A stretch of 43,361 bases of DNA from Dehalococcoidia bacterium. GTDB taxonomy: Bacteria; Chloroflexota; Dehalococcoidia; UBA2979. The DNA is taken from contig JAQWMB010000015.1 in the NCBI GenBank assembly GCA_029246995.1, positions 1-43,361 of the forward strand, written 5' to 3'. Below, piece by piece: positions 24,351 to 43,361 of the stretch (position 1 is the stretch's first letter; every line of letters starts with the position of its first letter). Both the position numbers and the translations under genes were made by a program. The notes beneath the pieces were generated by a model that saw only the letters and a program-made list of their open reading frames with translations, ran no database searches and was not told the origin of the DNA.

Positions 24351-24382
24351 ATACCCAACAATACATTGCAATATTTAGCTTT

Positions 24383-24724
24383 GTGGACGACCTGTAAGCG
24401 GAATTCTGTCCTCGTTTAAAAAAACGATGTACGACTATCCATCTAGGATTTAAGTTGCCTTAAACCTCAAGCAGCCTACCCTGGGGCTATTACGGACAAA
24501 TTAGCGCCCCTCTATTTGGCCTTGCTCCGAGTGGGGTTTGCCTAGCTACTTTTGTTACCAAAAGCACGGTGCGCTCTTACCACACCTTTTCACCTTTACC
24601 TTTACAGGAAGTATATTCTCTGTTGCACTTTCCATCGATTTGCATCGTCCGGTAGCTATCCGGCACTCTGTCCGTAGGAGTTCCGACTTTCCTCTAATAA
24701 ATTAGCAATCGTCCAGTCATCCAC
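24383..24724 (-). ncRNA. rnpB: RNase P RNA (M1-type, bacterial class A)
   Basis: Read on the minus strand, the 5' part contains GAGGAAAGTCGGAACTCC (the CR-I core), the middle contains GGTAAGAGCGCACC and GGCAAACCCC, then GTAGGCTGCTTGAG, and the 3' part contains GACAGAATTCCGCTTACAGG, all hallmarks of bacterial RNase P RNA. The ends GTGGATGACTG (5') and CAGGTCGTCCAC (3') pair as helix P1, which sets the boundaries at 24724 and 24383 to within a few bases, about 342 nt. It processes tRNA 5' leaders. It lies between modB and murE on the same strand. No terminator is seen after it, so read-through into murE is possible. Confidence 0.93.
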
Positions 24725-39793: not shown

Positions 39794-40573
39794 ATGTCAA
39801 TTGATGTATCAAGTCAAAATCATATCTCAATAGTCATAATAAATAATCCACCTGTAAATGCATTGGCAAGAGCAGACGTTATGTCTATTATGGATCATTT
39901 TATGGCACTTGGTGCAAGCGATGGGATCAGAGCTGCAATCTTAACAGGTGCTGGAACAAAAGCATTTTGTGCTGGGCTTGATTATAAGCGTGGAGGTGAC
40001 AGAGGTGGTGATTATGGAGTATATAAAGATCCTAGAGACCGCGGTGCTGACGGAGGAGGAGCAGATGCAATATGGGATTGTAGAGTTCCAGTTATTGGTG
40101 CGATAAATGGACCGGCATTAGGTGGTGGTCTTGTAATGGCAGCATGTTGTGACTACCTTATAGGTTCTACAAATGCTCAATTTGGTTTACCACAAATTTG
40201 GATGGGTAGTCTCGGTGGTGGTGGCCATGCATATAGAATTTTCCCTCAAGGATTAGCTAGAAGAATGCAATATACTGGGGAATATGTTAGTGCTAAAAGA
40301 GCGTTTGAAGTAGGCGCATTACAAGAACTTGTAGACCCTGAAAAATTAATGGATAGAGCACTAGAAGAAGCGAACAAGCTATCTACTAAAGTACCGGAAG
40401 GGATGAAAGCAGCTAAAGAAGCATTAAATCTTATGGAGTTAGCAATGCCTGATATTAGGATGGCACATAAAATTGAACAACCAATTATGGCAAGAATGCG
40501 TGGCAGCAAAGATCAAAAAGAAGCTAGAGAAGCATGGCTAGAACATCGTGAACCAAAATTTAGTGATGAGTAA
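39794..40573 (+). CDS. crotonase-superfamily (enoyl-CoA hydratase/isomerase) protein
   Basis: The 259 residues have the crotonase fold: oxyanion-hole segment TKAFCAGLDYKR near 55-66 and second oxyanion segment NGPALGGGLVMAACCDY near 110, then AQFGLPQIWMGSLGGGGHAYR. Both catalytic glutamates of true enoyl-CoA hydratase are replaced: the GGGCEL position reads GGGLVM and the QPEI position reads LPQI. It may therefore be an isomerase, thioesterase, lyase or dehalogenase-like member acting on an unknown CoA ester. A Gly/Asp-rich insert (KRGGDRGGDYGVYKDPRDRG) follows the first oxyanion segment. ATG start with AAGGTG upstream. It converges on an acyl-CoA dehydrogenase gene one base away. Confidence 0.87.
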   Translation: MSIDVSSQNHISIVIINNPPVNALARADVMSIMDHFMALGASDGIRAAILTGAGTKAFCAGLDYKRGGDRGGDYGVYKDPRDRGADGGGADAIWDCRVPVIGAINGPALGGGLVMAACCDYLIGSTNAQFGLPQIWMGSLGGGGHAYRIFPQGLARRMQYTGEYVSAKRAFEVGALQELVDPEKLMDRALEEANKLSTKVPEGMKAAKEALNLMELAMPDIRMAHKIEQPIMARMRGSKDQKEAREAWLEHREPKFSDE

Positions 40574-40574
40574 T

Positions 40575-41801
40575 TTAACCTCGCGGCAATCCTAGTCCTC
40601 TTGTAGCAATAATGTTGCGTTGTATCTCAGAAGTTCCACCAGCAATAGTCGAAGATATGTCATGCACATGTTTTTGTGTAAATTTTGAATGCATTGGAGC
40701 CCACTTGCTATTTGGGTCCCAGATATTTGCATATAATCCAAATGCCTTTATGCCAGTATTATTTAATCGCTGAGTTAATTCAGAATTAAATAATTTTGTT
40801 GTAGATGCTTCTTGATTTGGAATTAAACCTGCATTTTGCATAGAAATAATACGTAGAGAGAAGTTATAACCGACTTCGCATTCAATATAACGATCAGCGA
40901 TTGCATTCTTAATAGATTGAAAATGGGTATATTGAATAAATTTATTACTGCGAATTCTAAGAAAATCAATTAATGATTTAATAAATTTCTTTTTTTCAAT
41001 CATACCGGTTATATTGGACCTTTCATGATCTAAAAGAGTCATTGCTACATACCATCCACGATTTTCTTCTCCAATACGTTGTTTTATAGGTATTCTTACA
41101 TCTTGATAAAAGGTTTCATTTGTAGCATGCTCCCAGCCACCGCTAATAATTGGACGAATATCGATGCCATCTTGATTAATATCCATATAAACAAAAGAAA
41201 TTCCTCGATGCTTAGGAGCATCTTTATCAGTTCGAACTAACACAAATATCCAGTCTGCTTTATGTGCTGATGATGTCCATATTTTTTGACCGTTAAGAAC
41301 ATAATCATCTCCATCTTTTGATGCCCTTGTTTGTAAAGATGCAAGGTCAGAGCCAGCTCCTGGTTCTGAATAACCTTGCGCCCAAGTAACTTCACCAGAT
41401 AAAATTGGTGGTAATAATTCTTTTTTTTGTGCTTCAGTTCCATGAAGAACAATTGTTGGGCCTAACATATTAACTCCAGGCCCAGCTACAGGAGGAACAC
41501 CATGCCAAGCAAATTCAGAACGTAAAATAAATTGTTCCATTGGTGAGAGACCCCCACCACCATATTCTTTTGGCCAATGCGGTGCAACCCATTGATTTTT
41601 TGCTAAGGCATTAACCCACATAGATGCAGCTTGACGAGCTTCCTCTGACCCTACTTTAAAATCATATTGCCAACCACCAGTATGACCTTCAGCAATGCGT
41701 TCAGGAGAAGGATGTTTATAATAATTAGGCACCGAAGAATTTAAAAATTTAACTACCTTATCTCGAAATTTTTTTTGAGATTTATTATCTAGCCAGTCCA
41801 A
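40575..41801 (-). CDS. acyl-CoA dehydrogenase
   Basis: FAD enzyme introducing an alpha,beta double bond into acyl-CoA and passing electrons to ETF. The 408 residues show WPKEYGGGGLSPMEQFIL, GYSEPGAGSDLASLQTRA (FAD/substrate signature), LNGQKIWTSSAHKADW, GGWEHATNETFYQDVRIP and C-terminal IAGGTSEIQRNIIATRGLG. The usual Glu base of short/medium-chain enzymes (EGT) is Gly here (GGT), as in several other subfamilies. The start is TTG at 41801 with AGGA seven nt upstream; it gives the normal N-terminus. It could work with the crotonase homologue next door, but the substrate is unknown. Confidence 0.92.
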   Translation of the reverse strand: MDWLDNKSQKKFRDKVVKFLNSSVPNYYKHPSPERIAEGHTGGWQYDFKVGSEEARQAASMWVNALAKNQWVAPHWPKEYGGGGLSPMEQFILRSEFAWHGVPPVAGPGVNMLGPTIVLHGTEAQKKELLPPILSGEVTWAQGYSEPGAGSDLASLQTRASKDGDDYVLNGQKIWTSSAHKADWIFVLVRTDKDAPKHRGISFVYMDINQDGIDIRPIISGGWEHATNETFYQDVRIPIKQRIGEENRGWYVAMTLLDHERSNITGMIEKKKFIKSLIDFLRIRSNKFIQYTHFQSIKNAIADRYIECEVGYNFSLRIISMQNAGLIPNQEASTTKLFNSELTQRLNNTGIKAFGLYANIWDPNSKWAPMHSKFTQKHVHDISSTIAGGTSEIQRNIIATRGLGLPRG

Positions 41802-41901: not shown

Positions 41902-41907
41902 TATAAT
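41902..41907 (+). promoter_or_regulatory. consensus -10 box upstream of the structured RNA
   Basis: A perfect TATAAT, with no strong -35 at normal spacing. It would start transcription near 41914, just before the folded region. The remaining DNA from 41802 to 41901 holds no gene or repeat that I can see. Confidence 0.45.
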
Positions 41908-41913
41908 AATATT

Positions 41914-42108
41914 CATACATGCCTGCGGGGGGTTTGTTTCTCCAACTGGTTAATTTATTACAAAACTTGTAATCTACTGCCAGTTATAAGTTTTACTAAG
42001 TAAAATTTTAGCCCGAAACAAACGGCAGACCTATAAGGGCAACCCTGTAATCTTATGGTTACATGGAAATAAAAAAAAGGAGTATTAGGAAACTAGTGCT
42101 CCTTTTTT
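41914..42108 (+). ncRNA. unidentified structured RNA (orphan ncRNA or riboswitch-like leader)
   Basis: About 195 nt of non-coding sequence that folds well on paper. The outer helix is GTTTGTTTC (41932-41940) with GAAACAAAC (42015-42023), flanked by CTGC (41923-41926)/GCAG (42025-42028) and a G-run at 41927-41931 left as a bulge. Inside are AACTGG (41944-41949)/CCAGTT (41980-41985), enclosing a 7-bp hairpin at 41957-41973, and a 9-bp hairpin at 41988-42008. Outside is an AGGG-CAA-CCCT hairpin at 42036-42046 within CCTATAAG/CTTATGG, then the terminator. A TATAAT precedes it. It does not match RNase P, tmRNA, SRP RNA, tRNA or any riboswitch consensus I can recall. 6S RNA has similar size but a rod-like fold. 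Its identity is open. Confidence 0.55.
42073..42108 (+). terminator. strong intrinsic terminator with GAAA tetraloop
   Basis: A 16-bp stem pairing AAAAAAGGAG (42073-42082) with CTCCTTTTTT (42099-42108), continued inside by TATTAG/CTAGTG (two G-U pairs) and closed by a GAAA tetraloop at 42089-42092, ending in a T-run. It would terminate the structured RNA. The A-tract on the left means it may also work on the minus strand, for the dehydrogenase transcript coming from the right. Confidence 0.85.
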
Positions 42109-42211
42109 GTTTCTATTTTGATATAAATAATAAATTATATTTAATATAACTAGAACTTACATAGGATAGCTTTAATATTAATTCAGATAAAAAAATTACT
42201 GAGGAGTAGTT

Positions 42212-42382
42212 ATGTTAAAAATAAATTTTTCTACATCAATTCTTATTGCAGCATTTGCGTCTTTTCTCTTTTCAATTGGATTATGGTTTTTAGGCGATGA
42301 TCTTAAGCTAGAAGGTATTTTTGTAGGCATATGGGTCCCATCAATAATTTCATTTGGAATATTAATGGAGGTTCGTAAGTGA
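42212..42382 (+). CDS. 56-residue hypothetical membrane protein
   Basis: ATG at 42212 preceded by GAGGAG at ideal distance (42201-42206). The product has two likely transmembrane segments (TSILIAAFASFLFSIGLWFL and EGIFVGIWVPSIISFGILM), separated by GDDLKL, and a short EVRK tail. I do not recognise a family. The strong ribosome site, the transmembrane pattern and the stop/start overlap with the next gene support real coding despite the size. It lies about 100 nt downstream of a terminator and may be controlled by the structured RNA or by its own weak promoter (TTGATA at 42118-42123, TAATAT at 42142-42147). Confidence 0.65.
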   Translation: MLKINFSTSILIAAFASFLFSIGLWFLGDDLKLEGIFVGIWVPSIISFGILMEVRK

Positions 42383-42504
42383 GTCTTACTGGAATTGAAT
42401 TTATAGTAGGTAGCTTCGGAACAATCATTTTTGCAATTGTTTGTATAGGAACATACACTAAAATAGAGCTGGATAGACAAGAAAAAGAGTTAGAAGAAAA
42501 ATAA
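42379..42504 (+). CDS. 41-residue hypothetical membrane protein, coupled to the previous gene
   Basis: GTG start at 42379 overlaps the TGA stop of the 56-residue gene as GTGA, and ATGGAGG in the end of that gene serves as ribosome site. The product has one transmembrane helix (EFIVGSFGTIIFAIVCIGTY) and a charged C-terminal helix (KIELDRQEKELEEK), like small auxiliary subunits of membrane complexes. No family recognised. It ends 14 nt before the stop of the convergent dehydrogenase gene. Confidence 0.6.
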   Translation: MSLTGIEFIVGSFGTIIFAIVCIGTYTKIELDRQEKELEEK

Positions 42505-42518
42505 TATTTAAAGCATAT

Positions 42519-43361
42519 TTAACGTAATTGAACATGCTCAGAAGATATTTTCCATAGTTTTTCTCTAGCTTCATTGTTTGGCTTGCTTGTTTTTAATTCT
42601 TTTTGTTTATGCGCAAAAAATTGACCAGTGACTTTAAAATCATTGTCTGCAAGTGCTAAATTTATAATTCTTTGTCCACCATATTCAACTGATTCTAATT
42701 TTGATATATCTTCAATAAGACCGATTGAGGCAATATTTTCTGTCATATTAGTGCGAATAGTGCCTGGGTGGACTGCATTAATGTACACATGGTTTGCTAT
42801 TTCTTTTTCAGCTAGTGAAAAGGTAAAGGTATTTAATAAAACTTTACTCCTCCAATACGCTTTGATTAAACTATATCTTTCAGTCGTTTGCATATCTTTC
42901 CAATTGATATCAGATTCGTCAGCAACATCACTATCATCAGTATTGCCTAAAGTAGAGACATTGATCACTCTTGAATACCCATTATCTAAACTAGCTTTTC
43001 TAAGAAGTGGAATCAAATTATTAGTTAATAAAAATGGAGCTAAATAGTTAATTGTAAAGGTAAGTTCGAATCCATCGATACCAACCTGCCTATCAGTAAA
43101 AGTTGCTCCAGCATTATTTACTAACACATCCAGGTTATTAAAATTACTAACAATTTCCTTACTCATACTGCGTACATTATCAAGTGATGAAAAATCAGCT
43201 ACTATACTTAATACATTATCATTTCCTGTTGTTGAAATAATATCTTCAACTGTTGAATCAAGTAAAGATTGAGAACGACCATGAACAATCGTGCGAAATC
43301 CTTGCTCTGCAATTTTTCGTGCTGCATATAATCCTATACCATTTGTTGCTCCAGTTATTAA
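42519..43361 (-). CDS. short-chain dehydrogenase/reductase, 5' end beyond the window
   Basis: The frame is open from the window edge: about 65 residues lie upstream of the first internal Met and include the cofactor motif LITGATNGIGLYAARKIAEQ, so the true start is outside. The rest shows VADFSSL, LDVLVNNAGATF, a Ser in INVSTLG, YSLIKAYWRSK (YxxxK active-site pattern with a shift: the Tyr-Lys pair reads Y-S-L-I-K), and NAVHPGTIRTNM. This arrangement fits retinol-dehydrogenase/WWOX-like SDRs. At least 280 residues. Substrate unknown. Convergent with the mini membrane-protein genes. Confidence 0.87.
   Translation of the reverse strand, partial: LITGATNGIGLYAARKIAEQGFRTIVHGRSQSLLDSTVEDIISTTGNDNVLSIVADFSSLDNVRSMSKEIVSNFNNLDVLVNNAGATFTDRQVGIDGFELTFTINYLAPFLLTNNLIPLLRKASLDNGYSRVINVSTLGNTDDSDVADESDINWKDMQTTERYSLIKAYWRSKVLLNTFTFSLAEKEIANHVYINAVHPGTIRTNMTENIASIGLIEDISKLESVEYGGQRIINLALADNDFKVTGQFFAHKQKELKTSKPNNEAREKLWKISSEHVQLR

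What the first reader, a model, noticed from the sequence alone, without database searches (positions are those of the whole stretch)
41902..42108. Orphan structured RNA with its own -10 box and terminator
In the only large gene-free gap of the window, a perfect TATAAT is followed by at least four mutually compatible stems, a G-run bulge, and a 16-bp GAAA-capped terminator. It codes for nothing plausible and matches no RNA class I can recognise. It could be a trans-acting small RNA of about 195 nt, or a riboswitch/attenuator for the two mini membrane-protein genes starting about 100 nt later. The CCC at 42012-42014 and the CCC at 42043-42045 could each pair with the G-run at 41927-41932, which would allow alternative folds.
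Basis: partly seen in the sequence, partly recalled or inferred. Interest (0 to 1): 0.7.

Follow-up and report, generated by a model that had tools for sequence, protein, structure and literature searches.

The report
Orphan small-RNA gene, known from one genus
A marine Chloroflexota bacterium carries a roughly 195-base stretch with its own start and stop signals that probably makes a small regulatory RNA; it matches no known RNA family and was found only in the one sister species available, so it looks like an ordinary but unnamed small RNA.

Summary
A perfect TATAAT (41902-41907) and a 16-bp GAAA-capped terminator (42073-42108) enclose a folded, non-coding stretch. No + strand gene lies upstream to use that terminator. 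Rfam finds nothing, even at E<=10. A syntenic copy exists in the only other genome of the genus (L032) and in none of 393 class genomes sampled. The two copies share the terminator, a 3' hairpin (P4), a P1/P2/P3 rod with both-sided base changes, and invariant GCGGGGG, CUCCAACU and CGGCAGACCUA. The 151-nt core alignment folds better than 999 of 1000 column shuffles, although the rod part alone is weaker (p about 0.016) and the sister core is not unusually stable. I read it as a lineage-restricted, independently transcribed trans-acting sRNA. The attenuator idea is weakened: no conserved antiterminator was found, the mini membrane genes lack the RNA in the other lineages inspected, and a possible promoter lies between terminator and genes. 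It is not 6S, SRP RNA or tmRNA by model search. Targets and expression are untested. Interest is modest: a new sRNA family candidate of a known kind.

The parts
41902..41907 (+). -10 box TATAAT of the RNA promoter (weak -35)
   Evidence: the homologue also has a TATAAT, about 6 nt further upstream relative to the RNA
41914..42108 (+). inferred transcript of about 195 nt (start inferred as about 7 nt after the -10 box, end from the terminator)
   Evidence: start site not measured
41925..41932 (+). GCGGGGGG segment, G-run; GCGGGGG invariant in both copies; can pair with CUCC 41940-41943
41923..41926 (+). candidate P0 5' strand (YUGC), partner GCAG 42025-42028
   Evidence: 4 bp, one U-G variant, weak
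41932..41940 (+). P1 5' strand GTTTGTTTC, partner 42015-42023
   Evidence: T-A to A-T change on both sides in L032
41940..41947 (+). invariant CUCCAACU; mostly the bulge between P1 and P2 in the conserved fold, candidate seed
41948..41953 (+). P2 5' strand GGTTAA, partner 42008-42013
   Evidence: 6 bp with one both-sided and two one-sided changes
41965..41969 (+). P3 5' strand ACTTG, partner 41987-41991
   Evidence: 5 bp with two both-sided changes
41977..41981 (+). CUGCC in the P3 loop, possible pseudoknot partner of GGCAG 42024-42028
   Evidence: 5 bp, one C-to-U variant; hard to reconcile with a straight P1-P2-P3 rod
42008..42013 (+). P2 3' strand
42015..42023 (+). P1 3' strand GAAACAAAC
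42023..42033 (+). invariant CGGCAGACCUA
42047..42062 (+). P4 hairpin GUAAUC-UUAU-GGUUAC
   Evidence: becomes AUAAUC-GAAG-GAUUAU in L032 (compensatory change)
42073..42108 (+). intrinsic terminator, 16-bp stem, GAAA loop
   Evidence: conserved in L032 with changed stem bases and the same UUAGGAAACUA top

Best explanation
A stand-alone small-RNA gene found so far in a single genus. It is transcribed from its own promoter (about 41914), forms a rod (P1-P2-P3), a short 3' hairpin (P4) and a terminator at 42108, and acts in trans. The most likely mode is base pairing of its invariant single-stranded CUCCAACU bulge, which can be sequestered by the GGGG run, with mRNA leaders, possibly at ribosome-binding sites since CUCC complements the GGAG Shine-Dalgarno core. 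Shown: sequence anatomy, terminator, conservation of position, changes on both sides of several helices, absence from Rfam. Inferred: transcription, trans action, the pairing segment. The targets are unknown.
For: Promoter-like TATAAT and a strong terminator with no + strand gene upstream to terminate: the upstream gene runs away on the - strand and the last + strand gene ends at 40573. Fold z -4.88; core alignment -20.0 against -7.6 +/- 2.9 kcal/mol in column shuffles, 1 of 1000 as good. Syntenic homologue at E 4e-4, with 83% identity in the 5' part (41919-41954) and 81% in the terminator, against 52-60% in neighbouring non-coding DNA. Both-sided changes in P1, P2, P3 and P4. Invariant GCGGGGG, CUCCAACUG and CGGCAGACCUA. 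No Rfam match up to E 10 that is more than chance. A possible separate promoter for the downstream genes (TTAATA-TAGGAT in the window, TTGATC-TAGTAT in L032; read by eye).
Against: Only two sequences exist in the genomes searched, so covariation is thin: the rod region alone has p about 0.016, and the homologue's core is not more stable than shuffles (z -0.47). The lowest-energy folds of the two copies differ inside P1. Extended complementarity to CUCCAAC is not found at start codons: GTTGGAG occurs upstream of 0 of 301 and 0 of 299 genes sampled. No expression data.
Confidence: 0.5

Rival explanations
1. Cis-acting attenuator or riboswitch: the RNA is a leader whose terminator at 42108 is switched to control the two mini membrane-protein genes at 42212-42504.
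For: Same strand, 104 nt upstream, in both genomes of the genus. In L032 the 5' segment GGGGGAAUGUUA could pair 12 bp with the terminator's 3' arm (-13.5 kcal/mol; shuffled -6.8 +/- 1.8), which would be an antiterminator.
Against: The window copy lacks that pairing (-10.0 against -8.9 +/- 2.0), and nothing pairs with the terminator's 5' arm in either copy, so no antiterminator is conserved. The gene pair occurs in many phyla, and in the 14 loci whose upstream DNA was read it lacks the RNA. A possible promoter motif lies between terminator and genes in both copies.
Confidence: 0.16
2. A protein-binding housekeeping-type RNA, for example an analogue of 6S RNA, which this class mostly lacks, or of another missing ncRNA.
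For: 6S RNA is not found in 58 of 60 relatives. The RNA is a rod of roughly the size of 6S (about 195 nt).
Against: No 6S match. It has no closing stem joining the two ends and no central bubble; the 3' third is two separate hairpins. It is absent from the rest of the class, which an essential RNA would not be.
Confidence: 0.1
3. A short hydrophobic peptide gene, or a dual RNA: MPAGGLFLQLVNLLQNL in the window, MYACGGMLLQLINVLLYAIKTAKNAFN in L032.
For: GG-hydrophobic-LQL(V/I)N(L/V)L is conserved, and no second-position changes are seen in the 11 aligned codons; p about 0.05 against random substitution, for a frame chosen afterwards.
Against: No Shine-Dalgarno; different start context and length (17 against 27 codons); -10 boxes show no pile-up at leaderless distance before genes in either genome. 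The same bases form P1 and the G-run.
Confidence: 0.07
4. No function as RNA: a spurious short transcript or decaying intergenic DNA with a terminator that insulates the mini genes from upstream transcription.
For: The terminator dominates the folding signal; the middle (41955-42007) is 53% identical, no better than neutral spacer.
Against: Three segments of 7-11 nt outside the terminator are invariant while neighbouring spacer is 52-60% identical; both-sided changes in four helices; core alignment p 0.001.
Confidence: 0.15

Closest known systems
Trans-acting bacterial sRNAs with C-rich, anti-Shine-Dalgarno seeds (for example RsaE/RoxS-type; from general knowledge)
   Same: Independent promoter and intrinsic terminator, about 100-200 nt, an unpaired CUCC-type segment that is among the most conserved parts
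   Different: No sequence or covariance-model match; no targets shown; extended seed complement not enriched at start codons
6S RNA (RF00013)
   Same: Size and overall rod shape
   Different: No model match; ends do not pair; no central bubble
Terminator-controlled riboswitches and attenuators
   Same: Folded leader, terminator, genes 104 nt downstream on the same strand
   Different: No conserved antiterminator; possible separate promoter downstream; genes occur elsewhere without the RNA

Membership tests
6S RNA (RF00013) | covariance-model match over cut-off | tested here: not met
6S RNA (RF00013) | 5' and 3' ends paired in a closing stem around a central bubble | tested here: not met
   folds: 3' part is P4 plus terminator
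Bacterial SRP RNA (RF00169, RF01854) | model match | tested here: not met
tmRNA (RF00023) | model match, tRNA-like domain | tested here: not met
   no match; no ARAGORN hit in the window; the genome's tmRNA is elsewhere, G000:C11
Any Rfam family | score over gathering threshold | tested here: not met
   best sub-threshold match is the bare terminator hairpin
Terminator riboswitch or attenuator | alternative pairing that competes with the terminator, conserved between homologues | tested here: not met
   12 bp in L032, not in the window
Terminator riboswitch or attenuator | aptamer conserved upstream of the same genes in other lineages | tested here: not met
Trans-acting antisense sRNA | own promoter and terminator, no coding function | tested here: met
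   (sequence level only)
Trans-acting antisense sRNA | expressed as a discrete transcript | not testable with these tools
   needs RNA-seq or Northern blot
Trans-acting antisense sRNA | conserved mRNA targets of the exposed segment | tested here: inconclusive
   no extended complement at sampled start codons; about one third of each genome sampled

The most novel reading that the evidence does not exclude
A new, lineage-restricted RNA class with two conserved alternative states: GGGG pairs either with the neighbouring CUCC (hiding it and breaking P1) or not, so that a conformational switch exposes an anti-ribosome-binding-site segment or, in the sister species, an antiterminator.
Probability: 0.1. 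Interest if true: 0.5.

Novelty: new member of a known kind. Interest (0 to 1): 0.3.

Why it matters
The targeted literature searches made here found no described small RNA of SAR202-like marine Chloroflexota; a discrete, conserved one would be a first handle on post-transcriptional control in these streamlined ocean bacteria. Otherwise it is an ordinary orphan sRNA of the sort expected in any poorly studied lineage.

Tried and rejected
CCC 42012-42014 and 42043-42045 pairing with the G-run: both CCC runs are changed in L032. 6S, SRP, tmRNA: no matches. Wider homologues: pattern scan of the order (44 genomes), covariance model R1 in 393 class genomes and with looser filters in 38 relatives, pattern scan of viral contigs: none beyond the two. 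Anti-Shine-Dalgarno seed with extended complement: AGTTGGAG-N-ATG gave 21 hits against 3 for the reversed pattern in the two genomes, but none of the sampled gene starts carries (A)GTTGGAG. Leaderless short peptide: no leaderless pile-up in either genome. Pseudoknot CUGCY/GGCAG: conserved by sequence but sterically doubtful with P1-P3 stacked.

Full report
Where it lies. The window is contig 15 of an unfinished 1.19-Mb genome. The RNA sits between an acyl-CoA dehydrogenase-like gene running leftward (40575-41801, -) and two tiny rightward genes (42212-42382 and 42379-42504, +), followed by a leftward short-chain-dehydrogenase-like gene. Gene names here are my reading of the translations. No rightward gene ends within 1.3 kb upstream, so a rightward terminator at 42108 has nothing to terminate except a transcript that starts in this gap.

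Check of the observation. All stated coordinates are right. The terminator is real: 16 bp, GAAA loop, T-run. The transcript folds with z = -4.88. Without the terminator the 151-nt core has z = -3.1, within the lowest 4% of 475 windows drawn almost entirely from this genome's intergenic DNA; other windows in that tail include tRNA loci. The promoter call rests on the -10 box alone; the scan finds no more promoter-like sites than chance.

What it is not. Rfam gives nothing at gathering level, and only chance matches, chiefly to the terminator hairpin, at E <= 10. 6S is absent from the genome and from 58 of 60 relatives. tmRNA is elsewhere in the genome. SRP RNA models do not match it.

Comparison with the homologue. 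The only homologue lies at the same place in G001/L032. Along the 5.4-kb alignment the substrate-binding-protein and hydratase-like genes are 89% identical, the dehydrogenase 75%, spacers 52-60%; the RNA's 5' part (41919-41954) is 83%, its middle 53%, its terminator 81%. Three segments are invariant: GCGGGGG, CUCCAACUG and CGGCAGACCUA. Helices kept in both copies, with both-sided changes: P1 GUUUC/GAAAC to GUUAC/GUAAC; P2 GGUUAA/UUAGCC to GAUUAA/UUAAUU; P3 ACUUG/UAAGU to ACGCA/UGCGU; P4 GUAAUC/GGUUAC to AUAAUC/GAUUAU; plus the terminator stem. The core alignment folds at -20.0 kcal/mol against -7.6 +/- 2.9 in column shuffles, 1 of 1000 as good; the rod alone (columns 1-115) has p about 0.016. 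With P1 and P2 imposed, the cores lie 1.9 (window) and 1.8 kcal/mol (L032) above their minima. Two cautions: the homologue's core alone has z = -0.5, and two sequences cannot settle details. P4 and the terminator are secure, P1/P2/P3 likely, the CUGCY:GGCAG pseudoknot and the 4-bp P0 only possible.

Alternative folds. The G-run and CUCC (41940-41943) are both invariant and could form a hairpin that breaks P1; in L032 it is part of the minimum-energy fold, in the window it lies 2.7 kcal/mol above. Because neither side varies, there is no covariation evidence for or against it.

Cis or trans. For a cis role: same strand and 104 nt from the mini genes in both genomes, and in L032 a 12-bp pairing between GGGGGAAUGUUA and the terminator's 3' arm. 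Against: the window copy lacks that pairing; nothing pairs with the 5' arm in either; more than 300 relatives of the 56-aa gene were reported in many phyla, and in the 14 loci whose upstream DNA (up to 500 nt) was read no such RNA is present (motif scan of all loci held). A -35/-10-like pair (TTAATA...TAGGAT in the window, TTGATC...TAGTAT in L032) lies between terminator and genes, read by eye from the alignments. I therefore favour a separate transcription unit.

Mechanism. Inference only: the invariant, mostly unpaired CUCCAACU (window UCC unpaired at 0.97) is the natural pairing segment, and CUCC complements GGAG, found upstream of 55 of 301 and 42 of 299 sampled gene starts. No longer complement is seen there, so specific targets are not identified.

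Coding. One frame gives similar hydrophobic peptides in both species (17 and 27 aa), p about 0.05 after choosing the frame. There is no Shine-Dalgarno, the lengths differ, and the two genomes show no sign of common leaderless genes. Considered unlikely.

Novelty. A new sRNA family candidate by absence from Rfam, of a well-known kind, restricted to one genus in the data held. Interest is modest.

Noticed in passing
42196-42600: The two mini membrane genes and the stretch after them are 95-100% identical in DNA to the sister species L032, while flanking genes and spacers are mostly 52-75% identical. This suggests recent exchange of a 0.4-kb piece, or very strong constraint.
   Followed up: partly
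42212-42504: A pair of tiny membrane proteins (56 aa with an FVGIWVPSI motif, then about 40 aa) is found as adjacent, often overlapping genes in Chloroflexota, Bacteroidota, Planctomycetota, Acidobacteriota and others, yet has no Pfam or NCBIfam model.
   Followed up: partly
G000 and G001 (whole genomes): Neither genome of this genus has a detectable SRP RNA, small (E<=10) or large, though 9 of 11 other relatives have the large form. Both assemblies are incomplete (89% and 83%), so loss, divergence or a gap are all possible.
   Followed up: partly
L118 (G041:C227:21772-21948): Among 60 relatives one genome has a clear 6S RNA match (E 1e-13) while nearly all the rest lack it; that genome is listed with 9% contamination.
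   Followed up: no
L132:18031-18123 (-): A selenocysteine tRNA in this small genome.
   Followed up: no
24379-24724 (-): Bacterial RNase P RNA class A, in the second largest gap of the window.
   Followed up: no
L138:14093-14343 (+): Another stretch of the same genome with a strong folding score (z about -5.1) and no Rfam match; it overlaps a possible short membrane-protein frame.
   Followed up: no
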